Below, piece after piece: positions 47,388-62,270 of a stretch of DNA of 64,000 bases; the first letter of the stretch is position 1; each line of letters starts with the position of its first letter. The notes beneath the pieces were generated by a model that did no database searches, was not told the origin of the DNA, and was given only the letters and a program-made list of their open reading frames with translations. The position numbers were made by a program, and so were the translations under genes. The DNA is from Loktanella sp. D2R18 (lineage in GTDB: Bacteria > Pseudomonadota > Alphaproteobacteria > Rhodobacterales > Rhodobacteraceae): assembly GCF_003318235.1 (NCBI RefSeq), contig NZ_QOCG01000014.1:1-64000 (forward strand), in the 5' to 3' direction.

Positions 47388-48323
47388 TTACATTCCTGTG
47401 ACGGGCAATTCAGCCGCATCATTTATCTGAAATTTTGCGTCAAATCCGATGTTTGGGGTCGCAAAAACGACATGCCGCTGACAGAGATCAATCAGATGCG
47501 CAAAGACATTTCGCTGTGCTGCTGGCAGTAGCCCGGGCGAAAGGTCGCGGTAGATCGATTCTGTCAGGGAGGGAATCTTCGCTGCGCCCTGCCTTAACGC
47601 GGAAAGAATTTGCGCTTCTCGGTCTTGGCGATGGGTCATGAGCCACGCGAGCCGTTCTTCCGGTTGGGACACTGCCGCTCCGTGGCCCGGAAAATATCGT
47701 ACTGCAGGGATATCTTGCAGCTTGCGACATGACTGCATGAATGCTGTCAAATCCCCATCGGGTGGTGAGATCAGCGATGTCGACCAGCCCATGATGTGAT
47801 CGCCCGTAAATATATCATCGCCCCATGCAAAGCACAGGTGGTTCGCCATATGGCCCGGCGTGTGGATCGCGGTTATCTCTCCCCACGGGCCGTTGATCTT
47901 GGCGCCGTCAGCCAGATAGGCATCGGGTCGAAACCCCTTGTCTACGCCTTCTCCACCTTGCGTCATTCCCGCGGCAACAAGGGCGGTCATGATATCGCTG
48001 CGCCCGGCCTCACTATCGCCAAATCCAGCGATTGGCACCCCGGTTTGTTTGGCCAGCGCCATACAAAGCCCTGAATGATCTAAATGGCTGTGCGTAACCA
48101 AGATATGTGCGACCCTGCGGCCATCCAACGCTTGCAGTAATGCGTTGAGATGCGCTGGATCATCGGGGCCGGGATCAATCACTACGACGTCGTTTTCACC
48201 CAGAATATAAGTATTTGTGCCCCAATAGGTCATAGGCGATGCATTGGGGGCTAACATCCGTTGCAGCCCCGGTCGCAGCTGTTCGGCGATGCCAATAGGC
48301 GGCATTTTTTCGCGATGCGTCAT
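47388..48323 (-). CDS. Metallo-beta-lactamase-fold hydrolase
   Basis: A 311-residue protein with the HxHxDH metal motif in ILVTHSHLDHSGLCMAL (about residues 71-87) and further histidines in HTPGHMANHL and GDHIMG. The C-terminal winged-helix-like tail resembles the LACTB2/glyoxalase-II-like subgroup. It is divergent from the sensor kinase by 44 bases. Likely thioester or other ester hydrolysis; substrate unknown. Confidence 0.85.
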   Translation of the reverse strand: MTHREKMPPIGIAEQLRPGLQRMLAPNASPMTYWGTNTYILGENDVVVIDPGPDDPAHLNALLQALDGRRVAHILVTHSHLDHSGLCMALAKQTGVPIAGFGDSEAGRSDIMTALVAAGMTQGGEGVDKGFRPDAYLADGAKINGPWGEITAIHTPGHMANHLCFAWGDDIFTGDHIMGWSTSLISPPDGDLTAFMQSCRKLQDIPAVRYFPGHGAAVSQPEERLAWLMTHRQDREAQILSALRQGAAKIPSLTESIYRDLSPGLLPAAQRNVFAHLIDLCQRHVVFATPNIGFDAKFQINDAAELPVTGM

Positions 48324-48367
48324 ATTCTGCGCTTTCCGTTTAAAGGTGATAACGGTACCCTTGCCCC

Positions 48368-49687
48368 ATGATTTTCCGTTGGCTCAAAACCTATATGCCG
48401 CGCGGCATCTATGCGCGCGCTGCCCTGATCTTGATTTTGCCAGTTTTGCTACTGCAATTGTTGATTTCCGTCGTCTTTATTCAGCGCCACTTTGAAGGCG
48501 TAACACAGTTAATGACAAGCGCAGAAATTATCGACCTCGACTATATGATTGAAAGTGTGAACGCCGCGCCTGATATTGAGGCGGCGGGTGAGGTTGCTGG
48601 CCGTATTGGCATGGCCCTGCAAATTGCTGCCGTGTTTTCCGCCAATGATATCCCGTCACAAGACCAAATACCCTTTGTTGATCTCACCGGAAGTTCGGTC
48701 ATCGCGACGCTGCGGAACCGCATTGATCCGATTTTAGCAGTATCACTGGCGGATCGCCGCGTCGTGGTCATATGGATTGAAACGCGGCACGGGCCGCTGC
48801 GGTTCGAGTTTAGCAGGCGGCGGGTGTCTGCCTCAAACCCGCACCAACTACTGGTAATCATGGTTGTGATGGGCGCATTTATGACTGCGATTGCATTTAT
48901 CTTTTTACGCAACCAGCTCCGCCCGATCAAACGCATGGCAAAAGTCGCGACCGATTATGGGCGTGGACGGATCACCAATTTCACCCCCACCGGCGCCGTT
49001 GAAGTGCGCGCGGCGGGGACGGCATTTCTTGATATGCGCAACCGGCTAGAACGCCAAATCCAAAGTCGCACCTTGATGCTTTCGGGGGTCAGTCATGATT
49101 TGCGCACCCCGCTCACGCGTATGCGGCTTGGCCTGTCGTTCTTAGACGAAGAAGACGCCGCACCGCTGATTGAAGATGTCGACGAGATGCAGCGCCTATT
49201 GGATGCGTTTTTGGACTTTGCGCGCAGTGATGCCAGTGACGAAATCGCGCATACAGCGCCGGGTGACATCGTGCGCGGTGTGCTTGCCAGTCACAAACGC
49301 ATGGGCGATGCGCTGACCCTTGACCGCATCGAAGGCGGCGATATCCCCGTTCCGCTGCGCCCAACCGCAATCCGGCGTGCCTTGGATAATCTTGTGGGCA
49401 ACGCCCTGCGCTATGGCGATCGCGCACAAATCGGCGTGAGCGTCACAGATCGCGCAGTCCGGTTTTGGGTCGCTGACGATGGCCCCGGCATTCCGCCTGA
49501 ACAATATGACAACGCGATGAGCCCCTTTGTTCGGCTTGACCCTGCCCGCAACCAGGACAAAGGCAGTGGCGTAGGTTTGGGCCTTTCGATTGTTGCCGAT
49601 ATTGCACGCACCCATGGCGGTGTCCTACGGCTAAGCCGTTGTGAAAACCTTGGCGGGCTGAAGGCCGAATTGGTCATCGGTAGGTAG
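48368..49687 (+). CDS. EnvZ-like sensor histidine kinase
   Basis: A 439-residue membrane kinase. Two membrane helices (about 17-38 and 160-180) bracket a periplasmic domain. A HAMP linker (about 181-230) leads to the DHp domain with phosphoacceptor His243 in SGVSHDLRTPLTRMRLGL and the ATPase domain (VADDGPGI, then GVGLGLSIV). It resembles EnvZ. No response regulator lies beside it, so its partner gene is elsewhere; it is flanked by unrelated genes. Confidence 0.88.
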   Translation: MIFRWLKTYMPRGIYARAALILILPVLLLQLLISVVFIQRHFEGVTQLMTSAEIIDLDYMIESVNAAPDIEAAGEVAGRIGMALQIAAVFSANDIPSQDQIPFVDLTGSSVIATLRNRIDPILAVSLADRRVVVIWIETRHGPLRFEFSRRRVSASNPHQLLVIMVVMGAFMTAIAFIFLRNQLRPIKRMAKVATDYGRGRITNFTPTGAVEVRAAGTAFLDMRNRLERQIQSRTLMLSGVSHDLRTPLTRMRLGLSFLDEEDAAPLIEDVDEMQRLLDAFLDFARSDASDEIAHTAPGDIVRGVLASHKRMGDALTLDRIEGGDIPVPLRPTAIRRALDNLVGNALRYGDRAQIGVSVTDRAVRFWVADDGPGIPPEQYDNAMSPFVRLDPARNQDKGSGVGLGLSIVADIARTHGGVLRLSRCENLGGLKAELVIGR

Positions 49688-49720: not shown

Positions 49721-52700
49721 TCAGGTAAACCGTAGATCCAACGTCCAAAACTGATGCGTGTTCTCGCGCGGGCGGATCGGCGTGAAGCGTTCTGGCGTGT
49801 GCTGCCCGGGTACGAAACGTACACGGCGTCTGCCTTCGGCCTCGAGCTCATTCACGGGACGGGTTTCATGTGCCCGCCCGCCTTGGTGCGCGACATGATA
49901 GGTCAGCCCGCCAACAGAGCGCCCAATCGTTTTATCATAAAGATCGAACACAAGCGGCGCATGAGCCGGAATTGTCGGATGCAGCGATGACCAAGGTTGC
50001 CAACTGCGGAACCGAATCCCCGCCCCGCGCATGTCAGCCCCGTAATCACGTAAGGGCACTTCGACCTGATTACAGGTCAAAATATAGCGATCAGACCATT
50101 GGCCCGCGACAGTAATCTCAACACGCTCAAGGGAGCTATCGACATAGCGCGACGTACCGCCGGCGCTGCTTTCTTCGCCCAAGACCAGCCAAGGCTCGAT
50201 TGCATTGCGCAGGCTGAGGGTAAGCCCTTCGACCTCGGTGGTGCCGACTTCGGGGAAGCGGAATTCAAACTGCGCATCATACCAATCAGGGCGGAACTCA
50301 AACCCGTGGGCCTGCGTCAGATCAGCAAGCACCTCTTGGAAATCATCCCAAACATGATGCGGCAATAGGTGCTTATCATGCAGATCGCTGTCCCAATCGA
50401 TCAGCGGTTCTGTATAGGGCGTGTCCCAGAACCACGCCAAAAGCGCGCGAATGATCAGCCCCTGCGCCATCGACATTTGCCAATGCGGCGGCATTTCAAA
50501 CCCGCGAAACTCCACCAGCCCCAAACGCCCTGTTGGGCTATCGGGAGAGAACATTTTGTCGATACAGATTTCTGCGCGGTGCGTATTGCCGGTCAAATCC
50601 GTCAGCAAATGCCGCAAGATCCGGTCAGACAACCAAGGGAACCCCTGCCCGCTGTCTTGCATCCGCTGCAATTCTGAAAGCGCGATTTCCATTTCATAGA
50701 CATTGCCAGACCTGCCTTCGTCAAATCGCGGCGCCTGCGATGTGGGCCCAATAAAAGTGCCCGAAAACAGATAGGAAAGCGACGGGTGCCGCTGCCAATA
50801 GCGCACGACAGAGGCCGCAAGATCAGGGCGGCGCAAAAACGGGCTGTCGGCAGCAGTTTGCCCGCCAACAACGATATGATTGCCCCCGCCAGAGCCGGTC
50901 AACCGCCCATCAACCATGAAGGTAAAACTGTCCAATTCGCATTGGCGCGCTTCTTCATACAGCGCCTCTGTAATGTCGCGCAGCCCATTCCAATTGCTGG
51001 CCGGGTGAATGTTGATCTCGATCACGCCGGGATCTGGGGTGACGCGAATGACGTTGATTGACGGATCACGTGGTGGTTCGTAACCTTCGATCCGCACGGT
51101 CAGCCCCATGTCTTTGGCGGTATCTTCGGCGGCTTCGACCAGATCAAGATATTCATCAGCTGATCCAGTGGGCGGCATAAAGACGTGCAAAATCCCTGCG
51201 CGGACTTCAACAGTCAGCGCGGTGCGGATGGGTGTGCCTTCTTCCCAGAACGTCTGACCACCCGCTATCCAGTCGTCAGAGCTGCCGACGTCGCGCAACC
51301 AATGATTTGCGTCATAATCTTGTGCCGGCCCGGTCGCGCCACCAGATGCGGCCTGCATAACCTGCCGCGCGGGCAGCGGTGGGCGTCGTGTCATCGGATC
51401 GCGGACAAACGGTTTATCCACGCGGTGGCGTTTCCCTTGTTTGTTGCGTTCATTCTTGCGCAATGTTGCAAGCGGCAAACGCAGCCCTGCGGGGCTATCG
51501 CCGGGCGTCAAAAACAGCTTACCGCGCCGCGTCGTCCAGCGTTCAGACGCCCATTTGAACCGACGATGCGACGATGCCTTTGCCTGCGCAAGTTGTAGCG
51601 GGATCGCAAAGCTAGATGGTTTATCTAAGCCATTGTTCATCATACGGATAAGACGCGCACGTTCTTGCGGGTCTGACAATTCACTGTCTTCGGCGGTCAC
51701 ATTTTCAGGTAAAAGCGCCTCTGTCCCCATGAAATGCAGCGGATCTTCGTAGATTTCATGAACATACTCATCATCGAACCCAAGGTTCTCTGCGAGCTTT
51801 GACGCAAAATCGCTGGCTGTTTCCGATGTGGCGGTGCCTGTGCCCTCTTTCGCGATCAAATCAACATCAGACCAAAGCGGTAGCCCGTCGCCGCGCCAAA
51901 TGATCGAATAGGCCCATCGCGGCAATGCTTCGCCGGGATACCACTTGCCTTGTCCGTGGTGCAAAATACCATGCGGCGCGAACCGTTTGTGCAAACGACG
52001 CAGTAATTCATCGGCGTGTTGTTGTTTGGTCGGGCCGACCGCATCCGTTGTCCATTCAGCCCCATCACGATCATGCGCCGATATAAAGGTCGGCTCGCCC
52101 CCCATGGTCAGCCGCATATCTTGCGCCTTGAGCTTGGTCTCAATGGTTTGGCCCGCCTGGTCGATTTCAGACCATTGATCCGGCGACAAAGGCCGCGTGA
52201 CACGTGGGGGCTCTGCAATCCGTTGCACAGACATTTCAAAGCCGAACGTAACTTCGGCCATGTCGTGTGCGCCGGTAATCGCAGCAGCCGAACTTGGCTC
52301 AGGCGTGCAAGCCACGGGAATATGGCCTTCACTCGCAAACAGCCCTGACGTCGGATCCATTCCGACCCAGCCCGCGCCGGGCAGGTACACCTCTGTCCAG
52401 GCGTGCAGGTCGGTGAAATCTTCGGTTGGGCCGGACGGTCCCGAAATCGGTTTTTGGTCTGCAGTTAACTGGATCAGGTAGCCCGACACAAATCGCGCCG
52501 CATAGCCAAGGCTCCGAAACAGCGCGACCAACAACCATGCGCTATCACGGCATGACCCAAGCGCCTTCTTGATCGTTTCAGTTGGCGATTGCACGCCCGG
52601 TTCCATACGAATGGTATAGGCGACCGCATCAGCTACATATTGATTGATCGCCACCAACCAGTTGTTTGTCTGGCCCGTTTGAGGCGGCGCATTTGCCACG

Positions 52701-53089
52701 AATTCATCAAATATTGCCCCGCGCGCGATTTTTTTAAGGTACGGGCGCAAATCACGGGCCAACGCTTTATCATACAAAAACGGCACTTCTTCGGCGCTGG
52801 CATCAAGAAAGAAGTCAAATGGGTTAATCGCCACCATATCCGCAACCAGATCAACGGTCACCGATAGTTCACGCGTGGGTTCGGTAAACACGGTCCGGGC
52901 CTGCCAGTTTGAAAATGCGTCTTGCTGCCAGTTCAAGAAATGCGTTTTTGGCTCTACCGTTAGACTATAACTCAGGATCGGTGTGCGCGTATGCGGGGTT
53001 GGGCGAAGCCGAACAATATGCGGTGCGAGGGTGACCAATCGATCATAAGTGTAGGTTGTTTTATGTGAAAGTGCCACTTTTATAGACAT
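49721..53089 (-). CDS. Transglutaminase-DUF2126 fusion protein
   Basis: A 1122-residue protein. The N-terminal beta-sandwich (1 to about 110) leads to a transglutaminase-like core with Cys180 (ALGSCRDSAWLL), His229 (DLHAWTEVYLP) and Asp245 (GMDPTSGLF). The large remainder (about 320-1122) is DUF2126, which contains repeats such as GGEPTFISAHDRDG and GGGNHIVVGGQTAADSPFLR. No membrane segment or signal peptide is seen. Its neighbours across a divergent 113-base gap are an ATP-grasp ligase, an alpha-E protein and Anbu. This is the known gene neighbourhood of predicted peptide-ligation systems; its substrate is unknown. Confidence 0.9.
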   Translation of the reverse strand: MSIKVALSHKTTYTYDRLVTLAPHIVRLRPTPHTRTPILSYSLTVEPKTHFLNWQQDAFSNWQARTVFTEPTRELSVTVDLVADMVAINPFDFFLDASAEEVPFLYDKALARDLRPYLKKIARGAIFDEFVANAPPQTGQTNNWLVAINQYVADAVAYTIRMEPGVQSPTETIKKALGSCRDSAWLLVALFRSLGYAARFVSGYLIQLTADQKPISGPSGPTEDFTDLHAWTEVYLPGAGWVGMDPTSGLFASEGHIPVACTPEPSSAAAITGAHDMAEVTFGFEMSVQRIAEPPRVTRPLSPDQWSEIDQAGQTIETKLKAQDMRLTMGGEPTFISAHDRDGAEWTTDAVGPTKQQHADELLRRLHKRFAPHGILHHGQGKWYPGEALPRWAYSIIWRGDGLPLWSDVDLIAKEGTGTATSETASDFASKLAENLGFDDEYVHEIYEDPLHFMGTEALLPENVTAEDSELSDPQERARLIRMMNNGLDKPSSFAIPLQLAQAKASSHRRFKWASERWTTRRGKLFLTPGDSPAGLRLPLATLRKNERNKQGKRHRVDKPFVRDPMTRRPPLPARQVMQAASGGATGPAQDYDANHWLRDVGSSDDWIAGGQTFWEEGTPIRTALTVEVRAGILHVFMPPTGSADEYLDLVEAAEDTAKDMGLTVRIEGYEPPRDPSINVIRVTPDPGVIEINIHPASNWNGLRDITEALYEEARQCELDSFTFMVDGRLTGSGGGNHIVVGGQTAADSPFLRRPDLAASVVRYWQRHPSLSYLFSGTFIGPTSQAPRFDEGRSGNVYEMEIALSELQRMQDSGQGFPWLSDRILRHLLTDLTGNTHRAEICIDKMFSPDSPTGRLGLVEFRGFEMPPHWQMSMAQGLIIRALLAWFWDTPYTEPLIDWDSDLHDKHLLPHHVWDDFQEVLADLTQAHGFEFRPDWYDAQFEFRFPEVGTTEVEGLTLSLRNAIEPWLVLGEESSAGGTSRYVDSSLERVEITVAGQWSDRYILTCNQVEVPLRDYGADMRGAGIRFRSWQPWSSLHPTIPAHAPLVFDLYDKTIGRSVGGLTYHVAHQGGRAHETRPVNELEAEGRRRVRFVPGQHTPERFTPIRPRENTHQFWTLDLRFT

Positions 53090-53202
53090 GTGTGAACTAT
53101 TTCCTCGCTAAACGCCGCAATGGGCTTGGTTTCGACTATTAGATGTTATTTCCTGAACGATGAAAACAGTTAGGCGCTTTTCCAAGCCGCAACAAAGGTC
53201 AA

Positions 53203-54648
53203 ATGCACAAAAAAACGTCAGGAAGTAGTATGTATAATGAGATGTTTCGCGGATCGGGCCTGCGTGACGAATACGCAGTGATCGATGCGTGGTTAAAAAA
53301 ACACGGTCCAACGGCGCTTTTGGATCGTCAGGCAGAAGCCGAAGAAATGTTCCGCCGCATCGGCATTACTTTCGCCGTTTATACCGAAGGCAGCGATCCT
53401 GACAGACTGATCCCATTTGATATGGTGCCGCGTGTTTTCAATGAAAAAGAATGGTCAATTGTCGAACGCGGGTCGATCCAGCGCGCCAAAGCACTGAACT
53501 GCTTTATTGCCGACGTGTACGGCGACCGGAATATCGTGAAAGAAGGGATCATGCCCGAAGCGATGATCCTCAACAATCCTGCCTATATTAAACAGATGAA
53601 TGGCTACCGCCCGCCCAACGATATTTGGTCGCATATCATTGGTGTTGATATTGTCCGCACCGAGGAAGACAAATTCTTTGTTCTCGAAGACAATTGCCGC
53701 ACCCCTTCGGGCGTCTCTTATGTATTGCAGAACCGCGAGGTGATGCATCGCATGTTCCCTGACCTTTTCGAAGGTGGGCGCGTGCGTCCTGTCGATGGCT
53801 ACGGCGAACTATTAGCGGCGGCGATGCAGGATTGTGCACCTGCAAACTGCCCCGGCAAACCCACCCTCGCGCTCTTGACCCCCGGACAATATAACTCAGC
53901 CTATTACGAACACTACTTTTTGGCCGACCTTATGGGGATTGATCTGGTCGAAGGGTCAGATTTGTTCGTTGATAATGACATTGTATATATGCGCACAACA
54001 AACGGCCCCCAACGTGTGGACGTGCTGTATCGCAGGCTGGACGATGAATTTATGGACCCCGAGGTGTTCTTTGAGGGCAGCACTCTTGGTGTACCTGGAA
54101 TTATTCGCGCGATGAAAGCGGGCAATCTCACAATGGTTAATGCTCCAGGCACAGGCATCGCCGATGATAAATCTGTCTATACCTATGTCCCTGAAATGAT
54201 CCGGTTCTATCTGAACGAGGAGCCGATCATCGAAAACGTAACCACATATTGTTGCGAACGCCCGGATGAGCTAGCCTATGTTCTGGAACATTTATCAGAA
54301 CTCGTCGTTAAAGAGGTCCACGGGTCAGGTGGCTACGGGATGCTGATCGGCCCAACGTCAACGGCCGCGCAAGTCGAAGAATTTCGCGCCAAACTTATCG
54401 CGCGTCCCAACAACTATATTGCACAACCGACGCTCGCATTGTCGACATCGCCGATCTTGACGCCTGACGGTATGTCGCCGCGCCATGTTGACCTGCGGCC
54501 ATTTGTGATTTCGGGCAACCAAACATCGCTTATTCCAAGCGGGTTAACCCGTGTTGCCCTGCAAGACGGATCGCTCGTGGTGAATTCAAGCCAAGGCGGT
54601 GGCGTCAAAGATACATGGGTATTATCAGATCGGACATCACATGCTTAG
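53203..54648 (+). CDS. Circularly permuted ATP-grasp protein
   Basis: A 481-residue protein of the circularly permuted ATP-grasp (DUF404/407) family. Family motifs include VEDNCRTPSGVSYVLQNREV-type runs (LEDNCRTPSGVSYV), SQGGGVKDTWVL at the C-terminus and KEVHGSGGYGMLIGP in the middle. Such enzymes join a carboxylate to an amine, hence peptide ligation is predicted. An alternative start MYNEMF at 53230 with AGGAAG upstream is equally possible. Its end overlaps the alpha-E gene by eight bases. Confidence 0.9.
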   Translation: MHKKTSGSSMYNEMFRGSGLRDEYAVIDAWLKKHGPTALLDRQAEAEEMFRRIGITFAVYTEGSDPDRLIPFDMVPRVFNEKEWSIVERGSIQRAKALNCFIADVYGDRNIVKEGIMPEAMILNNPAYIKQMNGYRPPNDIWSHIIGVDIVRTEEDKFFVLEDNCRTPSGVSYVLQNREVMHRMFPDLFEGGRVRPVDGYGELLAAAMQDCAPANCPGKPTLALLTPGQYNSAYYEHYFLADLMGIDLVEGSDLFVDNDIVYMRTTNGPQRVDVLYRRLDDEFMDPEVFFEGSTLGVPGIIRAMKAGNLTMVNAPGTGIADDKSVYTYVPEMIRFYLNEEPIIENVTTYCCERPDELAYVLEHLSELVVKEVHGSGGYGMLIGPTSTAAQVEEFRAKLIARPNNYIAQPTLALSTSPILTPDGMSPRHVDLRPFVISGNQTSLIPSGLTRVALQDGSLVVNSSQGGGVKDTWVLSDRTSHA

Positions 54649-55612
54649 TCGGACCGCAGAAGGGCTTTTTTGGATGTCGCGCTATGTGGAGCGCATGGAT
54701 AACACAGCGCGGCTTTTAGATGCCGGGCGCAGGTTGGACGCATTACCTCGTCAAGATGGGGCCACATCGAGCGAATGGACATCAATCGTGATCGCATCGG
54801 GATGTTCGGACAGCTTTCCAGACGATCCGGAATCCGCAACATCAACCACGGTCCGTGAACATCTTGTCCGCGACGAAACAAACCCATCGTCCATCGTGTC
54901 TTGTATTCTTGCAGCACGACAAAATGCCAAAGCCGTGCGCCCGTCACTGACCTCTGAAGTTTGGGAAGCGATCAACCAGACACAATCAGAGTTGAAAAAA
55001 CATCTTCACAACGAATTTGACCGCAAAAACCTGAACGCATTTTTAGACTGGGCACATGGCCGGGCCGCGTTGATCATCGGGTCGGTCTTAGGCACAATGA
55101 TGCGCGATGATCGCTATGGGTTTGTGCAAATCGGGAAATGGTTTGAACGGGCTGACGCGACGGCGCGCCTCTTGGATGTCAAATACCATGTTCTTCTACC
55201 CAAAGTCGCCGATGTCGGTGGTGGGTTCGATTATCTGCAATGGCTTCAAATTTTGCGAGCTGCCAATTCTGCGACAGCATTTCGGCACGCCTATGGGCGT
55301 AGCCCAGATGCAGAAGGTGTGGTTGATCTTTTGGTGCTCAACCCACAAAGCCCAAGATCCTTACGGACCGCACTCGAACAACTCGACTTTGAATTGACGT
55401 CATTAACCAAAGGCAATGTAGGGCTTCAGCAAAAGTTGCTGGCCCAGGTTAAATTGCAAAGTCGGGCGATTGATCAACTTGCACTCGAAGATATTTTTGC
55501 CCGTGGGTTACACGAATGGTTAACAAACTTTATATTGGAAACCAATAACTTAGCGCGCATGACAGCTGTGGCGTTCGGGTTTGGCGCGATCCCGGAGCCT
55601 GACGCTTCATAA
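54641..55612 (+). CDS. Alpha-E domain protein (DUF403)
   Basis: A 323-residue all-helical protein starting MLSRTAEGLFWMSRYVERMD, the conserved DUF403 N-terminus. It overlaps the ATP-grasp gene by eight bases, so the two are made together. Alpha-E proteins accompany permuted ATP-grasp and transglutaminase genes in many bacteria. The fold suggests a helical partner or an enzyme, but no reaction is proven to my knowledge. The longer frame from 54599 is not needed. Confidence 0.9.
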   Translation: MLSRTAEGLFWMSRYVERMDNTARLLDAGRRLDALPRQDGATSSEWTSIVIASGCSDSFPDDPESATSTTVREHLVRDETNPSSIVSCILAARQNAKAVRPSLTSEVWEAINQTQSELKKHLHNEFDRKNLNAFLDWAHGRAALIIGSVLGTMMRDDRYGFVQIGKWFERADATARLLDVKYHVLLPKVADVGGGFDYLQWLQILRAANSATAFRHAYGRSPDAEGVVDLLVLNPQSPRSLRTALEQLDFELTSLTKGNVGLQQKLLAQVKLQSRAIDQLALEDIFARGLHEWLTNFILETNNLARMTAVAFGFGAIPEPDAS

Positions 55613-55713
55613 AAAATTTGTGAATTCGTTGTATCGTTTACATCGATCAACTTGCGACACGTGTCCAGATGCCTCATAGAACGGCTCTGAACGTTTCTCT
55701 ACTGGAGCAAAAA

Positions 55714-56475
55714 ATGACGTATTGCGTCGCAATCAAACTTGATGCCGGGATGGTATTTCTATCGGACACACGCACAAACGCGGGTCTCGATAACATTGCC
55801 AAGTTCAAAAAGATGTTCACTTGGGAAGTTCCGGGTGACCGTTGCATCACGTTGATGACCGCAGGCAACCTTGCGATTACGCAAGCCGTGATTTCGCTGC
55901 TGCAAGAAAATATCGACCACCCGGAAAATGGCTTAGAAACAATTCTTTCTGCGCCTTCAATGTTTCGGATCGCGGAACTTGTTGGTGATGCGATGCAAGT
56001 TGTGCAAACCCGCTATGGCCCCGGCATGACGCAAACCGGTGAAAGCACCATGAGCTCAATCCTTGTCGGCGGGCAACGCGCAGGCGGTGCCCCGCGTTTG
56101 TTCCACGTCTACACGGCTGGCAATTTTATAGAAGCAACGGCTGAGACACCCTATTTCCAAATCGGCGAACATAAGTACGGTAAACCGATCCTAGACCGGA
56201 TCATTACGCCCGAAACTCCACTGGATGTTTCGGTGACCGCTGCCCTTCTTTCAATGGACTCAACCTTGCGTTCAAACCTTTCGGTTGGCATGCCTTTGGA
56301 TCTTTCGGTGCTTGAGACTGACAAATTGCAATTTTCGCAAAACCGCCGCATTTCCAAGCAGGACCCTGACTATCAACGGCTGTCTGTTGGTTGGTCCACA
56401 GCGCTGCGCAATGCCTTTGATGAAGTGATGCATTTAAACGTCCAACAACAGCAAAGCCAAAGCCAGAAAGTATGA
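55714..56475 (+). CDS. Anbu, proteasome-related peptidase
   Basis: A 253-residue Ntn-hydrolase of the Anbu (ancestral beta-subunit) family, related to HslV and proteasome beta-subunits. After removal of Met1 the nucleophile is Thr2 (MTYCVAIKLD). Supporting residues include Asp18 in SDTRTN and Lys33 in FKKMFTW. It starts at 55714, not 55669, because Thr must be exposed directly after Met. It follows the ATP-grasp/alpha-E pair by 101 bases. In other bacteria Anbu sits with the same genes, implying it cleaves or processes their product. Confidence 0.92.
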   Translation: MTYCVAIKLDAGMVFLSDTRTNAGLDNIAKFKKMFTWEVPGDRCITLMTAGNLAITQAVISLLQENIDHPENGLETILSAPSMFRIAELVGDAMQVVQTRYGPGMTQTGESTMSSILVGGQRAGGAPRLFHVYTAGNFIEATAETPYFQIGEHKYGKPILDRIITPETPLDVSVTAALLSMDSTLRSNLSVGMPLDLSVLETDKLQFSQNRRISKQDPDYQRLSVGWSTALRNAFDEVMHLNVQQQQSQSQKV

Positions 56476-56507: not shown

Positions 56508-56704
56508 CGTGTTGATGCATAAGGTCCGCTCAAAACAACATGGCTTGTGCTCGCACATCTGTGCCTTTTCTCTCGTGCTCTTCTCCCTACCCCCACGCGT
56601 TAATAAACTGACCCCAAAGGGCGTAAATCTTTTGCTTCACATCGTTCTCCGCATCGCGCAAACCTTTGGTGACGCGCGTAATAAACCAATCGGGGAACGA
56701 ATAT

Positions 56705-57673
56705 ATGAAAATGGGATTTGTGGGACTAGGCAATGTCGGCGGTAAACTTGCCGGAAGCCTTTTGCGGAATGGATTTGACCTCACGGTTTTGGATCTAAAT
56801 CCTGATCTCGTTGCGGATTTTGTCGAAAAAGGTGCAAAAGCCGCACAAAGCCCTGCCGAACTCATGCGCGATTGCGATGCGGTGATCACCTGTTTGCCGT
56901 CACCAGCGGCCTGCGCCACAGTGGTCGAAGCAATGTTGCCCGAAGTAAATGACACGAAAATCTGGATGGAAATGTCCACTACCGAAGTGTCCGAGGTCAA
57001 ACGCCTTGCGGAATTGGTTGCACAAAAAGGCGGATCAGCGATTGAATGCCCTGTATCGGGCGGGTGCCATCGCGCCGACACCGGTAATATTTCGATCTTT
57101 GCAGGCTGCGACCGGCCCACATTTGAACGGATGCTGCCAATTCTAACAACTCTTGGGCGCCGGGTTTTGCACACAGGCGAAATCGGGTCAGCATCGACCC
57201 TCAAGGTCATGACAAACTACCTTGCGACCGCAAATTTGCTGACCTGCTGTGAAGCATTGGTGACAATGAAAGCCGCAGGTATTGACCTTAACACGACCTA
57301 TGAAGCGATGAAGATCAGCTCGGGCACGTCATTTGTACATGAAACCGAAAGTCAGGTTATCTTGAACGGATCGCGCGATATTTCGTTCACGATGGACCTT
57401 GTAAAAAAAGACATCGGCCTGTTTCAAAAGCTAGCCGAAGACGCCAATATTCCGTTGGAAATCAGCCCTTTGATGGTGCAAATTTTCGACGATGGAATCG
57501 CGAAATACGGCGACCGCGAACTGTCACCAAATATTATTCGTCGCCTCGAAGACGCGACGGGTTTGGATGTGACTGCGCCGGGATTCCCGCTGGAACTGAC
57601 GGACGATGAACCAGAAGAACAAGGCTACGAAGTTATACCAACAGGGTTAAGCAAACCCGTTTTAGCGGAGTGA
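56705..57673 (+). CDS. 3-hydroxyisobutyrate-dehydrogenase-like NAD(P) oxidoreductase
   Basis: A 322-residue beta-hydroxyacid dehydrogenase. The N-terminal Rossmann fold has GFVGLGNVGGKLAGSLLRNG (about residues 4-23). The substrate motif is ECPVSGGCHRADTGNISIFA, and the catalytic lysine is in STLKVMTNYL. GGGGA precedes the ATG by 8 bases. It is the first gene of the class II aldolase/dioxygenase operon and begins well after Anbu (229 bases). Confidence 0.85.
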   Translation: MKMGFVGLGNVGGKLAGSLLRNGFDLTVLDLNPDLVADFVEKGAKAAQSPAELMRDCDAVITCLPSPAACATVVEAMLPEVNDTKIWMEMSTTEVSEVKRLAELVAQKGGSAIECPVSGGCHRADTGNISIFAGCDRPTFERMLPILTTLGRRVLHTGEIGSASTLKVMTNYLATANLLTCCEALVTMKAAGIDLNTTYEAMKISSGTSFVHETESQVILNGSRDISFTMDLVKKDIGLFQKLAEDANIPLEISPLMVQIFDDGIAKYGDRELSPNIIRRLEDATGLDVTAPGFPLELTDDEPEEQGYEVIPTGLSKPVLAE

Positions 57674-57677
57674 TTAG

Positions 57678-58421
57678 ATGACACATCAAAACATGGACCA
57701 CTGGAAAGAGCGCGCGGACCTTGCCGCGACATTCCGCTGGGCTGCCCGGCTCAACATGCACGAAGGCGTTGCCAATCACTTTAGTCTTGCGGTGAATGAT
57801 GATGGCACGCAATTCCTGATTAACCCAAACCAAGCCCATTTTGCGCGCATCAAAGCATCTGACCTGCTTTTGCTGGACGCCAATGACCCGAATGTTCTGG
57901 ATCAACCTAACGCGCCCGACCCAACCGCGTGGGGCCTGCACGGATCATTGCACCGTTTGTGTCCCCACGCACGCTGTGTCATGCACACCCATTCGATTTG
58001 GTCGACTGTGTTGGCCTGCCTCGCCGATAGCACCCTGCCCCCAATCGATCAAAACACAGCGACATTTTATAACCGTTACGTGATCGATCAGGAATTTGGT
58101 GGTTTGGCTTTCGAATCCGAAGGCATCCGCTGCGCTGAAATGCTCTCGGACCCCGCGAAAAAAGTCATGATCATGGGCAACCATGGCGTCTTGGTCATTG
58201 GCAGCGATGTCGCTGACACATTCAACCGCCTTTATTACTTTGAACGTGCTGCAGAGACCTATGTGCGCGCTTTGCAAACCGGGCAAAAGCTGCGCGTTCT
58301 TTCTGATGAAGTCGCGGAAAAAACAGCCAAAGAATTAGATGATTATCCCGGCCAGGCAGAGGCCCATTTGGCCGAAATCCGCGCCATCCTTGATGATGAA
58401 AAAAACACCTACGCTAATTAA
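57678..58421 (+). CDS. Class II aldolase/adducin-family protein
   Basis: A 247-residue protein. The metal-binding histidines lie in RCVMHTHSIWSTVLACL, and the third is in IMGNHGVLVIG. It starts five bases after the dehydrogenase. The role in this pathway is unassigned: such enzymes can cleave aldols or act as isomerases or decarboxylases. Confidence 0.85.
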   Translation: MTHQNMDHWKERADLAATFRWAARLNMHEGVANHFSLAVNDDGTQFLINPNQAHFARIKASDLLLLDANDPNVLDQPNAPDPTAWGLHGSLHRLCPHARCVMHTHSIWSTVLACLADSTLPPIDQNTATFYNRYVIDQEFGGLAFESEGIRCAEMLSDPAKKVMIMGNHGVLVIGSDVADTFNRLYYFERAAETYVRALQTGQKLRVLSDEVAEKTAKELDDYPGQAEAHLAEIRAILDDEKNTYAN

Positions 58422-58451
58422 CGCCAACCTCCATATCACGAGATCAAGACC

Positions 58452-59561
58452 ATGATGAACACGCAGTTTGAATTGCAGGACAACGGGGTCATCGTACCGC
58501 TGTCTAGTGGCCCTAAATACTTTAACTATTACTGGCTCCGTGATGCGAGTAATTCCAGCATTGACCCCCAAACCCGCGAACGTATCTTTGACGTGTCTCA
58601 GCTTGCCAGCGCCCCCAAGGCGCAGGCCCTGTCGGTCAAAGATGATATGCTCGTGATCGATTGGGAAGCCGAAGACTGCCCAAGCGAGGTCCCGCTTGCA
58701 CTGCTTGAAAGTGTTGCGACAACTGGCCGGGCCGCAGATGTTGCGGCTATCCCACGTAAGGTTTGGTATAGCGACCATTTGCCCAACATCCCTCGCATCC
58801 CGCAGGCAGAGGTGATCAACACAGCTGCCGGTCGCGCCGAGCTGACCCGCGCATTGATCGAGGACGGCATCGCCATCGTCACCGAAATGGAGCCAACGGA
58901 AGATTCCCTGCCCAATCTGGTCAAGGCAATCGGCCCGGTTACCCCATCGGGCGAAGGGTTGTTCTTTAACGTGCGCGTTGAAATTGAGCCAACAAACCTT
59001 GCCTTTACGGCGGGTCCGCTTGAAATGCACACCGACCTGCCCGGCGAAGAAGCGGCCCCAGGCGTGCAGTTCTTGCATTGCCTTGAGAATACGGTCGACG
59101 GCGGCCTTTCACTGTTTTTAGACGGCGTCGCGGTTGCGATGGCGCTTAAAGAAGAAGATCCAGACGCGTTCGACATGCTTGCGGCACATAAGATTCCGTT
59201 CTTTTATCGGCACGATAAGATTGATTACCGGTCGCATCAGCGTGTGATCGAAACTGATCAGGACGGCAATGTCACCGGGGTGACTATTTCTCAGCATCTT
59301 CAGGACAACATGGATCTGCCCCAAGACCTTCTTGATCGCTATTACCCGGCCTTCATCAAGTTCATTCGCATGATGCAAGAAGACCGGTTTTTGCTGAAAT
59401 TCAAATCCGAGGCCGGAAATTGCGTGGTGTTTGATAACCACCGGATCGTCCACGGGCGCGAAGGCTATGTCGCCGACAGTGGCAGTCGCCATTTGCGCGG
59501 GTGCTACACCGACCGCGCCGCGATGCGCAGCACCTACCGGATTGCATCGAAATCTGCATAA
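58452..59561 (+). CDS. Gamma-butyrobetaine-hydroxylase-like dioxygenase
   Basis: A 369-residue Fe(II)/2-oxoglutarate dioxygenase. An N-terminal DUF971/GBBH-like domain (YFNYYWLRDASNSS, about residues 24-37) precedes a TauD fold. The iron ligands are His and Asp in EMHTDLPG and the distal His in VFDNHRIVHGREGY. Gamma-butyrobetaine hydroxylase and trimethyllysine hydroxylase share this domain order, so a carnitine-like substrate is possible but not proven. It is third in the operon and ends at a strong bidirectional terminator. Confidence 0.85.
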   Translation: MMNTQFELQDNGVIVPLSSGPKYFNYYWLRDASNSSIDPQTRERIFDVSQLASAPKAQALSVKDDMLVIDWEAEDCPSEVPLALLESVATTGRAADVAAIPRKVWYSDHLPNIPRIPQAEVINTAAGRAELTRALIEDGIAIVTEMEPTEDSLPNLVKAIGPVTPSGEGLFFNVRVEIEPTNLAFTAGPLEMHTDLPGEEAAPGVQFLHCLENTVDGGLSLFLDGVAVAMALKEEDPDAFDMLAAHKIPFFYRHDKIDYRSHQRVIETDQDGNVTGVTISQHLQDNMDLPQDLLDRYYPAFIKFIRMMQEDRFLLKFKSEAGNCVVFDNHRIVHGREGYVADSGSRHLRGCYTDRAAMRSTYRIASKSA

Positions 59562-59600
59562 AAAAACGGCGCGGGGATCAAACCCCGCGCCGCATCTTTT
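59559..59600. terminator. Bidirectional terminator between convergent operons
   Basis: CGGCGCGGGG at 59567-59576 pairs with CCCCGCGCCG at 59583-59592 around a six-base loop. An A-run on the left and a T-run on the right make it work in both directions. It separates the dioxygenase operon from the aldehyde dehydrogenase operon. Confidence 0.93.
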
Positions 59601-59617
59601 TGAATTTATTGATCTAT

Positions 59618-61048
59618 TTACGCCACGAACGGCGGGCGCACCTTTACCTCAAGATAATCTTCTAGACCAAGCATCCCACCTTCGCGGCCATTGCCAGACT
59701 GTTTATAGCCACCAAAAGGTGATCCATAGTCAGGTCCGCGCCCGTTGATCTGGATCGTTCCCGCACGCAGTTGACGCACGACACGCGCAGCGCGCTCTGG
59801 GTCACTTGTCTGCACATATGCGGCCAATCCATATTCTGTGTCATTGGCCATGCGGATGGCGTCTTGTTCTGTATCAAACGGCGTGATCACCAAAACCGGA
59901 CCAAAGATTTCTTCGCGTGAAATCCGCATATCGTGATCCACATCACAGAAAATCGTAGGCTTCACGAACCAGCCTTTGTTGATCCCGTCAGGACGCCCAA
60001 GACCACCGACCAAAACCCGTGCGCCTTCGTCAATCCCCATTTGGATCATGGCCTGCACCCGGTCATATTGGATTTTATCGAACAAAGGCCCGATGTGGTC
60101 GCCCTCTTGCGTTGGATCGCCAACTTCTTGTGTCAAGGCGACAGATTTCGCGATCTCGAGCACATCATCATAGCAGCTGCGTTCCACCAAAAGGCGCGTG
60201 GGCGCGTTGCATGATTGGCCCGTGTTATAAAAACAGCCTTCGACACTTTCCTTAATCCGCTTGTCCAAATCAGCGTCGGCGAAAACAAGGTTAGGTGACT
60301 TGCCACCCAATTCGAGCGTCACGCGTTTGACGGTGTCAGCCGCATCCTTTGATACAGCTGTGCCCGCGCGGGTGGACCCGGTAAAGGACATCATCGCAAT
60401 ATCAGGATGGCGCGACATTGCAGACCCAACCGATGGCCCATCACCCTGCACAAGGTTGAAAACACCAGCGGGATAGCCAGCGGCATCCACGATTTCAGCA
60501 TAGATTTGCGCAGACCACGGCGTGTGCTCTGAAGGTTTTAGCACGCAAGTCGCCCCAGTTGCCAAAGCAGGCACAACCTTAAGCGCAATTTGGTTAATCG
60601 GCCAGTTCCACGGTGTGATCAGACCGCAAACACCAATCGGTTCATGGCTGATGATATCGCCATTGTACAAGATTTCTTCTTCGTCCAAAGTTTCAAGCGC
60701 CGTAATAAAATGATCCAAGTGGCCCAAGCCCGCGTCGGCTTGCACACCCAAAGACATCGTCGCTGGCGCACCCATTTCTGCGGTCATCGCCTCTGCCAGA
60801 TCGCCCATTCGCGCCTCTGTTGCGACACGCAGCTTTTTCAGCAGCGCGAGGCGTTCTTCCTTAGTGGTCATTGAAAACGTTTCAAACGCACGTTTGGCTG
60901 CTGCCACCGCGCGATCGACATCTTCGCTATTGCCCATTGATACCGTCCCGATTTGGGCTTCGGTCGCGGGGTTCATGATGGGCATTGTTGCGTCAGACGC
61001 CGGGTCCACCCATGCGCCATCAATATAGAATTTATTCAGTGTCAGCAT
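59618..61048 (-). CDS. NAD(P)-dependent aldehyde dehydrogenase
   Basis: A 476-residue enzyme (start MLTLNKFYIDGAWVDP with AGGAG upstream). The NAD motif LELGGKSPNLVFADADL and catalytic cysteine in GCFYNTGQSCNAPTRLLVE are present. The active-site glutamate lies in VTLELGGK. It follows the enolase-superfamily gene by 10 bases. In the proposed pathway it oxidises the aldehyde made upstream. Confidence 0.92.
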   Translation of the reverse strand: MLTLNKFYIDGAWVDPASDATMPIMNPATEAQIGTVSMGNSEDVDRAVAAAKRAFETFSMTTKEERLALLKKLRVATEARMGDLAEAMTAEMGAPATMSLGVQADAGLGHLDHFITALETLDEEEILYNGDIISHEPIGVCGLITPWNWPINQIALKVVPALATGATCVLKPSEHTPWSAQIYAEIVDAAGYPAGVFNLVQGDGPSVGSAMSRHPDIAMMSFTGSTRAGTAVSKDAADTVKRVTLELGGKSPNLVFADADLDKRIKESVEGCFYNTGQSCNAPTRLLVERSCYDDVLEIAKSVALTQEVGDPTQEGDHIGPLFDKIQYDRVQAMIQMGIDEGARVLVGGLGRPDGINKGWFVKPTIFCDVDHDMRISREEIFGPVLVITPFDTEQDAIRMANDTEYGLAAYVQTSDPERAARVVRQLRAGTIQINGRGPDYGSPFGGYKQSGNGREGGMLGLEDYLEVKVRPPFVA

Positions 61049-61058
61049 ATTGCGTCTC

Positions 61059-62270
61059 CTAGTGGGTAATCGGTTGTTGTGCCATTTCGAGGTGAAGCGC
61101 GTCGCCCGTATAGGGCATATCGGCGATTGCCTCATCGTTGAGTTCCAACCCTAAACCTGGGGTCGTTGGGGGAATAATGTAACCATTGTCCCACGTAATT
61201 TCGCCTTTCACAGAGGACATGTAGGGACCATCAAATGTGCCAATGCTTTCCAAGATCAAAAAGTTCGGACTGCATGACGCGATTTGGATATTCGCTGCGG
61301 CAACAATGGGACCACAATAGAGATGCGGCGCAATTTGCACCGACCGCGTTTCTGCCATCCCGGCGATCTTCTTGGCTTCCAGAAGCCCCCCAACCCGGCC
61401 CAAATTGATCTGCAGGATGGAGGCCGCGCTCGTTTCTATCATCCGTGCGAACTCATGTTTGGTGCAAAGCCGTTCGCCAGCGGCGACGGGAATAGATGTG
61501 AATGCCGCGACCTGCGCCATGTCTGAGGGGTTTTCCGGCGGTAGCGGTTCTTCGAACCAAAGCGGATCGAACGGTTCAATCGCACGCGCCATACGTTTGG
61601 CACCAGACACCGTAAACTGCCCATGCGTGCCAAAAAGTAGGTCCGCGCTGTCACCAACCGCCGCGCGGATCGCACGGCAAAAGCCAACGCTCAGTGTGAT
61701 ATCTTCCAGCCGAGGCTGCCGCCCATCATAGATCGAAAATGGACCCGCTGGGTCAAATTTCAGCGCGGTAAACCCCTGCTCGACCATTTCAGCCGCGATC
61801 TGAGCCGCGATGTCTGGATCATTGTAGGCATTCGGCGTTGATGGATCGGGATAGACATCACCGGACGGCGGATAAATATAGGAATAGCTGCGCAAGCGAT
61901 CATGCACGCGCCCGCCAAGCAATTCGTAAACAGGCTTATCCGCAGCCTTGCCGACGATATCCCAACACGCCATTTCCAGACCACTAAAGACACCCATTAC
62001 AGTGACATCGGGGCGCTGCGTAAAACCGGCCCCGTAAGATTTGCGAAACAGTTTCTCAATATGATGGGGGTCGGCCCCGTCAAAATGGCGCCCGAACATA
62101 TCGCGGGCCATCGCACAGCATAGATCCGGGCCGAATGTCGCGTTATAAATCTCGCCGACGCCAGTGATCCCGCAGGCGGTGGTCAGGCGGACAAAGATAA
62201 AATAGCGCCCACCATGGCGCGGCGGCGGGTTTCCCACGACAAAGGTTTCCAGTTTTTCGAGCTTCATCAT
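61059..62270 (-). CDS. Mandelate racemase/muconate-lactonizing enzyme family protein
   Basis: A 403-residue enolase-superfamily protein, beginning MMKLEKLETFVVGNPPPRHG. The barrel motifs are ALKFDPAGPFS (lysine position), LLFGTHGQFTV (metal ligand position), FEEPLPPENP and AAGERLCTKHEF; the C-terminal APHLYCGP holds a histidine that could be the general acid. This pattern is close to sugar-acid dehydratases of the galactonate type. The true substrate is unknown. Its start overlaps the GMC oxidoreductase stop by four bases. Confidence 0.85.
   Translation of the reverse strand: MMKLEKLETFVVGNPPPRHGGRYFIFVRLTTACGITGVGEIYNATFGPDLCCAMARDMFGRHFDGADPHHIEKLFRKSYGAGFTQRPDVTVMGVFSGLEMACWDIVGKAADKPVYELLGGRVHDRLRSYSYIYPPSGDVYPDPSTPNAYNDPDIAAQIAAEMVEQGFTALKFDPAGPFSIYDGRQPRLEDITLSVGFCRAIRAAVGDSADLLFGTHGQFTVSGAKRMARAIEPFDPLWFEEPLPPENPSDMAQVAAFTSIPVAAGERLCTKHEFARMIETSAASILQINLGRVGGLLEAKKIAGMAETRSVQIAPHLYCGPIVAAANIQIASCSPNFLILESIGTFDGPYMSSVKGEITWDNGYIIPPTTPGLGLELNDEAIADMPYTGDALHLEMAQQPITH

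What the first reader, a model, noticed from the sequence alone, without database searches (positions are those of the whole stretch)
49721..56475. Transglutaminase, ATP-grasp, alpha-E and Anbu: a peptide-ligation and proteolysis system
This neighbourhood pairs a predicted ligase (ATP-grasp), a helical partner (alpha-E), a very large transglutaminase-DUF2126 protein and a proteasome-like Ntn peptidase with its nucleophile Thr in place. It resembles a tagging-and-removal system, like pupylation in logic but not in sequence. The modified substrate and the ligated group are unknown. All catalytic residues of the transglutaminase and Anbu are intact, so the system should be active.
Basis: partly seen in the sequence, partly recalled or inferred. 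Interest (0 to 1): 0.75.

Follow-up and report, generated by a model that had tools for sequence, protein, structure and literature searches.

The report
Variant Anbu protease–ligase gene cluster
A marine bacterium carries a known but poorly understood set of genes thought to attach and remove peptide groups, in an unusual form in which one large two-domain enzyme stands in for the small enzyme that close relatives have, sometimes at the same chromosomal place.

Summary
The genes are real and intact. This is a variant of the published Anbu operon (circularly permuted ATP-grasp, alpha-E, transglutaminase, Anbu), not a new system. Corrections: the large protein is divergent; its DUF2126 part is itself a predicted amidoligase, so two predicted ligases are present; Anbu starts at 55714. 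New here: in canonical loci the transglutaminase is a short protein between alpha-E and Anbu, and TG-DUF2126 belongs to a second, paralogous cluster. The window's lineage merges the two. Trees put its ATP-grasp and Anbu with the Anbu operon, its TG-DUF2126 with the other cluster. Of 56 genomes of the genus, 36 have Anbu beside a short transglutaminase, 7 the merged form, none two Anbu genes; 12 of the 36 sit beside the same kinase/hydrolase pair as the window's, so one form probably displaced the other in place. The fused ATP-grasp of the second cluster has lost ligase residues; the merged form kept the intact type. Relatives are nitrogen-regulated in print; the merged form shows no sigma54 site. 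No conserved small ORF was found. A pupylation-like cycle is possible but unshown: no substrate, tag or Anbu peptidase activity is known. A glutamine-synthetase relationship of DUF2126 was not confirmed.

The parts
49721..53089 (-). TG-DUF2126: N-terminal transglutaminase-like domain (residues 6-246, triad C180/H229/D245) fused to DUF2126, a putative amidoligase (276-1120); holds the only Bact_transglu_N domain found in the genome
   Evidence: Pfam; one Bact_transglu_N match in the genome; triad intact in 41 of 42 DUF2126 rows, the 42nd cut by its contig end; 186 invariant DUF2126 columns over 39 rows
53230..54648 (+). Circularly permuted ATP-grasp of the intact, standalone type; E153/N155, K361 and the GSGGYG loop kept; start 53230 preferred over 53203
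   Evidence: Pfam; phmmer 2.6e-173 to PDB 3n6x; residue comparison; tree; sequence
54641..55612 (+). Alpha-E protein, predicted all-helical; overlaps the ATP-grasp gene by 8 bases
   Evidence: Pfam, sequence, AlphaFold2 model mean pLDDT 90.3 from 30 sequences
55714..56475 (+). Anbu, Anbu-1 type, Thr nucleophile at residue 2, to be exposed after Met removal
   Evidence: sequence, phmmer to 5loy/5nyj/5nyf/5nyw/5lox, catalytic and S1 residues (compared with PMC5666114)
53090..53229 (.). 140-base divergent intergenic region, presumed to hold both promoters; no sigma54 site found; similar in sequence only among the closest Yoonia
47388..49687 (.). Flanking MBL-fold hydrolase (-) and histidine kinase (+): the landmark next to which the canonical operon stands in 12 relatives; not itself part of the system

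Best explanation
The locus is a merged form of the Anbu operon. Shown: ATP-grasp and Anbu are of the Anbu-operon lineage; the short transglutaminase normally between alpha-E and Anbu is absent from the locus; a divergent TG-DUF2126 protein of the paralogous cluster's lineage supplies the only Bact_transglu_N domain found in the genome; in the genus this form and the canonical one do not occur together, and in several genomes they stand at the same chromosomal landmark. Inferred: both forms do the same job, so the transglutaminase domain is the shared requirement. Inferred mechanism: ATP-grasp, with alpha-E as its constant partner or carrier, forms an amide bond through an acyl-phosphate; the thiol transglutaminase domain transfers or removes the attached group; DUF2126 may carry out a second ATP-dependent ligation; Anbu hydrolyses the products, recycling nitrogen-rich peptides when nitrogen is short. 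Likelihoods: merged Anbu operon about 0.95; functional interchange of the two transglutaminases about 0.7; a ligate-and-cleave cycle about 0.5; protein (not small-peptide) substrates about 0.3.
For: Families and residues. Co-occurrence: ATP-grasp and alpha-E in the same 40 of 115 genomes, Anbu 30 of 30 and DUF2126 17 of 17 inside them. Merged arrangement in 20 of 80 kept relatives plus the window; 18 canonical, 2 TG-DUF2126 with Anbu only, 40 Anbu without partner in the stretch held. Trees: merged Anbu with the two partial loci one clade, 94/92; merged DUF2126 one side of a branch, 100, quick tree; merged ATP-grasp among the standalone type and apart from the fused type, 19 of 20 in one fork, L077 unplaced, quick tree; DUF2126-linked and short transglutaminases separated by one change. 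Genus: 36 with Anbu beside a short transglutaminase (34 with ATP-grasp and alpha-E also seen), 7 merged, 12 no Anbu, 1 fragment, one Anbu each; P about 3e-4 without correction for kinship. Same landmark: 12 canonical loci carry MBL(-) HK(+) directly before ATP-grasp, as the window and 3 relatives do before TG-DUF2126. Nioella (L071) has TG-DUF2126 and Anbu at one place, ATP-grasp, alpha-E and short TG without Anbu elsewhere, and one Anbu in the genome. Nitrogen control of relatives; sigma54-like sites in 6 of 85 upstream regions against about 1 expected; ntrC, glnL and an amidase near a plasmid cluster.
Against: No substrate, product or tag is known. Published work found no Anbu peptidase activity and no operon complex. 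No sigma54 site in 20 merged loci, so nitrogen control of this form rests on relatives; in one P. putida study the Anbu gene itself rose only 1.1-4.8 fold. The transglutaminase is not universal: Variovorax PCZ-1 (G124) has ATP-grasp, alpha-E and Anbu but no Bact_transglu_N match. Of five merged genomes checked, four have no other Bact_transglu_N (G000, G091, G117, G118) but Chachezhania (G119) has a short one elsewhere. Ruegeria (G115) has a canonical operon as well as the TG-DUF2126 and Anbu pair, against strict exclusion. Exclusion in the genus was judged by Anbu alone; TG-DUF2126 elsewhere in the canonical genomes was not searched. The four merged kinases form one clade, so the in-place exchange may be one event.
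Confidence: 0.6

Rival explanations
1. The cluster makes and breaks down a small peptide or amide metabolite, for instance a nitrogen store or a glutathione-like compound; no protein is tagged, and Anbu and the transglutaminase are peptidases for that compound.
For: The only solved relative of the ATP-grasp found is annotated as a putative glutathionylspermidine synthase (3n6x); nitrogen-limitation control of relatives; the peptide-synthesis proposal attributed to Iyer et al. 2009.
Against: PMC5666114 argues that the Anbu structure and inhibitor binding speak for protein degradation and make this less likely. No metabolite is known.
Confidence: 0.3
2. Anbu is a general nitrogen-starvation protease; the ligase genes share only its regulation and act in a separate path.
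For: Anbu without a partner is common: 40 of the 80 kept loci show no ATP-grasp hit in the stretch held, some of which are short; no stable complex among operon proteins in print.
Against: Anbu never occurs without the core in 115 genomes (30 of 30), also when unlinked (9 of 9 Anbu-2-like); the three genomes of partnerless loci that were checked (G122, G123, G124) also carry ATP-grasp and alpha-E.
Confidence: 0.15
3. TG-DUF2126 sits beside the merged locus by chance or hitch-hiking and does not take the place of the short transglutaminase.
For: TG-DUF2126 usually belongs to another cluster: of the 13 class genomes with both Anbu and DUF2126, 10 have them on other contigs or far apart. Chachezhania (G119) keeps a short transglutaminase elsewhere.
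Against: One clade keeps the pair over several families; two members have TG-DUF2126 with Anbu but no ATP-grasp or alpha-E at the place (L070, L071); none of the merged loci has a short transglutaminase gene.
Confidence: 0.1
4. The locus is an anti-phage or mobile accessory system.
For: Patchy within the genus (12 of 56 genomes without an Anbu match, two of them under 90% complete) and related proteins on plasmids.
Against: No PADLOC match for any of the four proteins; one weak phage match, to the transglutaminase part; base composition 53.3% against 53.9% of the window.
Confidence: 0.02

Closest known systems
Anbu operon (ATP-grasp, alpha-E, transglutaminase, Anbu), as described in PMC6376114 and PMC5666114 and attributed there to Iyer et al. 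2009 and Valas and Bourne 2008
   Same: Same ATP-grasp and alpha-E, Anbu-1 with intact Thr, Asp, Lys; a transglutaminase domain beside them
   Different: No short transglutaminase in the locus; a divergent TG-DUF2126 protein instead, of another lineage
Second cluster: TG-DUF2126, fused ATP-grasp~alpha-E, short transglutaminase (for example L044, L155, L161)
   Same: TG-DUF2126 is of this lineage
   Different: The fused ATP-grasp there has lost E153 and N155 (0 of 17 keep either), mostly K361 (5 of 17 keep it) and the glycine loop, and no Anbu lies in those stretches; the window has the standalone type (66 of 66 standalone rows keep E153, N155 and K361)
Burkholderia cenocepacia I35_5080-5083 and P. 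putida PP_2685-2688, nitrogen-regulated clusters (PMC5491218, PMC7801951; passages read)
   Same: Same gene families, strongly nitrogen-controlled
   Different: The passages do not show a merged form; control of the window's locus is untested
Pupylation-proteasome system (recalled)
   Same: Ligation and a proteasome-like Ntn peptidase in one pathway, in logic only
   Different: No conserved small ORF, no AAA+ partner of Anbu in print, ATP-grasp in place of the PafA ligase, Anbu an open ring in print
RimK/RimB and RloABC (PMC12239564, passages read)
   Same: ATP-grasp protein paired with a peptidase; RloB has a transglutaminase domain
   Different: Aspartic peptidase, inactive membrane-bound transglutaminase domain, no alpha-E named; analogy only

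Membership tests
Anbu (Anbu-1) | Sequence similarity over the full length to solved Anbu | tested here: met
   1.3e-84 to 5loy (a designed Anbu), 8.8e-73 to 5nyj
Anbu (Anbu-1) | Thr directly after Met, Asp17, Lys32 and the Anbu-1 S1 pocket rather than the basic Anbu-2 pocket | tested here: met
   T1, D17, K32 in 111 of 111 Anbu rows; window T20, F30, T48, L52, T55 (pockets of both types in PMC5666114)
Anbu (Anbu-1) | Open-ring assembly and Thr reactivity | not testable with these tools
   published for relatives only
Anbu operon | ATP-grasp and alpha-E adjacent to Anbu | tested here: met
Anbu operon | Separate transglutaminase gene in the same operon, conserved order of four genes | tested here: not met
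   no short transglutaminase in the locus; the only Bact_transglu_N match of the genome is in the divergent TG-DUF2126
Transglutaminase-like superfamily | Cys-His-Asp triad | tested here: met
   C180/H229/D245
Transglutaminase-like superfamily | Transamidase rather than protease activity | not testable with these tools
   the fold serves both (recalled)
Circularly permuted ATP-grasp ligases | Conserved acidic/Asn pair, ATP lysine and glycine loop (roles recalled from glutathionylspermidine synthase, not from a call) | tested here: met
   E153, N155, K361, GSGGYG
GS-like amidoligase (DUF2126) | Membership in Pfam PF09899, described as putative amidoligase | tested here: met
   1157 bits, 826/826 positions
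GS-like amidoligase (DUF2126) | Detectable glutamine-synthetase relationship or fold | tested here: inconclusive
Pupylation-like tagging system | A conserved small tag protein encoded at the locus | tested here: not met
   1186 small ORFs of 18-130 residues in 22 loci; among the 25 best linked, none matches more than two other clades, and the two that do are arginine- and proline-rich
Pupylation-like tagging system | Dedicated AAA+ unfoldase | not tested
   none among the neighbouring genes scanned; the rest of the genome was not searched for it

The most novel reading that the evidence does not exclude
The merged locus is the working sum of two paralogous ligation systems: the paralogous cluster's ATP-grasp is a dead pseudo-ligase that only presents alpha-E, so its ligase is DUF2126; lineages like this one dropped the dead half and joined DUF2126 to the live ATP-grasp, alpha-E and Anbu, giving a two-ligase, two-hydrolase modification cycle in which one protein carries both the DUF2126 ligase and the thiol transferase that attach and release the group.
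Probability: 0.2. Interest if true: 0.72.

Novelty: new variant of a known kind. Interest (0 to 1): 0.45.

Why it matters
Anbu has had solved structures since 2017 but, in the papers I could read, no known substrate. A natural exchange between two forms that differ in their transglutaminase component gives a direct genetic test: does TG-DUF2126 restore a short-TG mutant? It also ties DUF2126 to Anbu; in the held library the word DUF2126 was found in no paper and PF09899 in one, a Mycobacterium leprae genome comparison seen as a listing only. And it suggests which copy of the ATP-grasp is the real ligase, so that biochemistry can start from the right protein.

Tried and rejected
Glutamine-rich Anbu tail (QQQQSQSQKV) as a transglutaminase acceptor: rejected, not conserved in the relatives whose tails were listed. 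Conserved small ORF as tag: none found. Sigma54/NtrC promoter in the merged form: none in 20 upstream stretches. Divergent intergenic footprint: similar only among the closest Yoonia. Defence-system reading: no PADLOC match. Functional coupling with the downstream HIBADH, aldolase, TauD and ALDH genes: rejected, seen beside the locus only in the window, L061 and L062. GS relationship of DUF2126 by sequence: not found. Alpha-E relatives in the PDB: none by sequence (one hit at E 2.9); its fold could not be searched.

L041 and L079 are the same record and both count in the residue tallies; L041 and L065 were left out of the trees and the sigma54 count, L144 and L162 (cut by contig ends) out of the DUF2126 tree, and 41 of 51 partnerless Anbu rows out of the Anbu tree. 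Only 10 of the 80 loci were followed to whole genomes. Of the 36 canonical genus loci, L224 ends at its contig end after the transglutaminase and L241 shows no ATP-grasp or alpha-E in the stretch; L234 and L237 have an ATP-grasp cut by the contig end. The ATP-grasp, DUF2126 and transglutaminase trees are quick ones without bootstrap.
Full report
WHAT IS THERE. Four intact genes lie at 49721-56475. Pfam names a transglutaminase N-terminal region, transglutaminase core and DUF2126 in the 1122-residue protein on the minus strand, then, on the plus strand, a circularly permuted ATP-grasp, Alpha-E and a proteasome-family protein. The last is Anbu: it matches five solved Anbu sequences at 1.3e-84 to 1.9e-63. 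The sequence suggests that the long ORFs are over-extended: the ATP-grasp probably starts at 53230 after AGGA, alpha-E at 54641 with an 8-base overlap, Anbu at 55714 after GGAG so that Thr follows the initiator Met. The window's genome has one match each to Bact_transglu_N, alpha-E and this ATP-grasp family. The closest relatives named are Yoonia, Rhodobacterales.

KNOWN SYSTEM. PMC6376114 and PMC5666114 (passages read) describe the Anbu operon of ATP-grasp, alpha-E, transglutaminase and Anbu and cite Iyer et al. 2009 (not held) for a tagging or peptide-synthesis proposal. [quoted passage not shown] PMC5491218 (passages) lists a Burkholderia cluster of ATP-grasp, alpha-E and two transglutaminase proteins, one large, among the genes lowered in an ntrC mutant (log2 -6.0 to -9.4). 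PMC7801951 (passages) reports induction of PP_2686-2688 by 11- to 37-fold under nitrogen limitation and of the Anbu gene PP_2685 by only 1.1- to 4.8-fold; the table passage of PMC3325844 gives 11.1 and 4.0 for PP_2685. PMC3597751 (passages) links Bact_transglu_N, DUF403, DUF404 and DUF407, but not DUF2126, to urea metabolism in marine metagenomes.

CO-OCCURRENCE. In 115 genomes drawn from the class, ATP-grasp and alpha-E occur in the same 40; Bact_transglu_N in 41, of which 40 are these; Anbu in 30, all inside the 40; DUF2126 in 17, all inside the 40. The hypergeometric values (2.8e-30 to 3.9e-5) ignore kinship. Nine of the 30 Anbu genomes hold only a distant, Anbu-2-like match, not adjacent to the core; the eight of these that I read carry the basic S1 pocket described for Anbu-2. 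Against a strict rule, Variovorax PCZ-1 has ATP-grasp, alpha-E and Anbu but no Bact_transglu_N match.

TWO PARALOGOUS CLUSTERS AND A MERGER. The canonical Anbu operon is ATP-grasp, alpha-E, short transglutaminase, Anbu. The second cluster is TG-DUF2126, a fused ATP-grasp~alpha-E of about 800-1080 residues, and a short transglutaminase. The window has neither: TG-DUF2126 is divergent to ATP-grasp, alpha-E, Anbu. Of the 80 loci kept, 20 have this merged form, 2 have TG-DUF2126 and Anbu only, 18 are canonical and 40 show no partner in the stretch held. Merged Anbu proteins form one clade with the two partial ones (94/92, just under the tool's star); so do their DUF2126 proteins (100, quick tree). 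The merged ATP-grasps lie among standalone ones, apart from the fused type; 19 of 20 are in one fork and L077 is unplaced (quick tree). DUF2126-linked transglutaminase domains are separated from short ones by a single change on the tree (quick tree), so the window's large protein did not arise by adding DUF2126 to the operon's own short transglutaminase. Partial versions exist elsewhere: G025 has Anbu, a short transglutaminase and TG-DUF2126 together; two betaproteobacteria have TG-DUF2126 divergent to ATP-grasp and alpha-E, about 3 kb apart, with Anbu elsewhere; an Enterobacter plasmid strings ATP-grasp, alpha-E, TG-DUF2126, fused ATP-grasp and short transglutaminase in a row.

EXCHANGE WITHIN THE GENUS. 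Among the window's genome and 55 others of its genus, 36 carry Anbu beside a short transglutaminase (34 of them with ATP-grasp and alpha-E in the stretch), 7 the merged form, 12 no Anbu match and 1 a fragment; none has two Anbu genes (P 2.5e-4 to 3.3e-4 without correction for kinship). Whether the canonical genomes hold TG-DUF2126 elsewhere was not searched. In 12 of the 36 the operon directly follows an MBL(-) HK(+) pair whose kinase is 67-73% identical to the one that borders the window's locus and those of three merged relatives, while the ATP-grasp and Anbu are only 54-56% and 48-51% identical to the window's. The plain reading is that one form displaced the other in place. The four merged kinases are one clade, so this may be one event, and its direction is open. 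Outside the genus, Ruegeria 2205SS24-7 keeps a canonical operon with its own Anbu plus a TG-DUF2126 and Anbu pair, and Nioella has TG-DUF2126 and Anbu at one place and ATP-grasp, alpha-E and short transglutaminase without Anbu about 50 kb away, with one Anbu in the genome. Of five merged genomes checked for further Bact_transglu_N, four have none and Chachezhania has one. Three canonical operons without a local transglutaminase (L047, L048, L056) are in genomes with one elsewhere.

ACTIVE SITES. Transglutaminase triad: intact in 41 of 42 DUF2126 rows (the other is cut by its contig), in 29 of 32 canonical short ones, 13 of 14 of the second cluster, 6 of 9 others and the one mixed locus, and in 47 of 47 rows of the genus and family set. 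Anbu T1, D17, K32: 111 of 111 rows. ATP-grasp: E153, N155 and K361 in 66 of 66 standalone rows (20 merged, 33 canonical, 13 other); E153 and N155 in 0 of 17 fused rows, K361 in 5 of 17, and the glycine loop mostly lost, though that stretch aligns poorly. The roles of these residues are recalled from glutathionylspermidine synthase. The fused ATP-grasp of the second cluster therefore looks like a pseudo-ligase; whether this is in print I do not know, as the 2009 paper was not held.

DUF2126 AND ALPHA-E. DUF2126 has 186 columns invariant in 24 merged-type and 15 other rows, which speaks for a working enzyme, but a glutamine-synthetase relationship was not seen by PDB profile search, Pfam or hhalign against E. 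coli GlnA (the last scored below shuffled controls), and its model is of middling quality (mean pLDDT 67.7). The amidoligase reading rests on Pfam's description alone. Alpha-E is modelled with confidence as all-helical (90.3) and has no sequence relative in the PDB.

REGULATION. Sigma54-like sites lie 40-160 bases upstream of ATP-grasp in 4 of 32 canonical, 1 of 12 other and 1 of 2 betaproteobacterial stretches and in 0 of 16 second-cluster, 0 of 3 canonical without transglutaminase and 0 of 20 merged ones: 6 of 85 against about one expected by shuffling. An Acidithiobacillus plasmid cluster lies near ntrC, glnL and an aliphatic amidase. Nitrogen control of the window's form is thus an inference from relatives.

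VERDICT. A real, intact and conserved variant of a known system of unknown substrate. The pupylation comparison stays a possibility with no tag found and no unfoldase known. The gain is a natural exchange that makes the role of the transglutaminase and of DUF2126 testable.

Noticed in passing
L215, L221, L226, L227, L229, L231, L232, L233, L239: Nine of the 36 canonical genus loci have a second short transglutaminase gene, triad intact, directly upstream of ATP-grasp, on the side where the merged form has TG-DUF2126.
   Followed up: partly
L043, L055, L105 (canonical), L045, L165: Some short transglutaminases lack the catalytic Cys (Tyr, Pro, Ser, Ser, Gly at that column), while none of the 41 complete DUF2126-linked domains does; the L105 case may be a frameshift or misalignment.
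   Followed up: partly
L181 (Enterobacter roggenkampii plasmid): A five-gene cluster of this kind lies on a plasmid typed IncFII, with IS elements on both sides within about 9 kb.
   Followed up: no
L183 (Acidithiobacillus caldus megaplasmid): TG-DUF2126, ATP-grasp and alpha-E lie near ntrC, glnL and an aliphatic amidase; the TG-DUF2126 match falls in two pieces.
   Followed up: no
56666-61135: HIBADH-like dehydrogenase, class II aldolase-like protein, TauD/gamma-butyrobetaine-dioxygenase-like protein and aldehyde dehydrogenase, possibly a quaternary-amine or phosphonate path; seen next to the locus only in the window, L061 and L062.
   Followed up: partly
40 partnerless loci among L091-L140: Anbu-1 stands alone in these mostly Burkholderiales loci, mostly with Ser at S1 positions 48 and 55, while ATP-grasp and alpha-E lie elsewhere in the three genomes checked.
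   Followed up: partly
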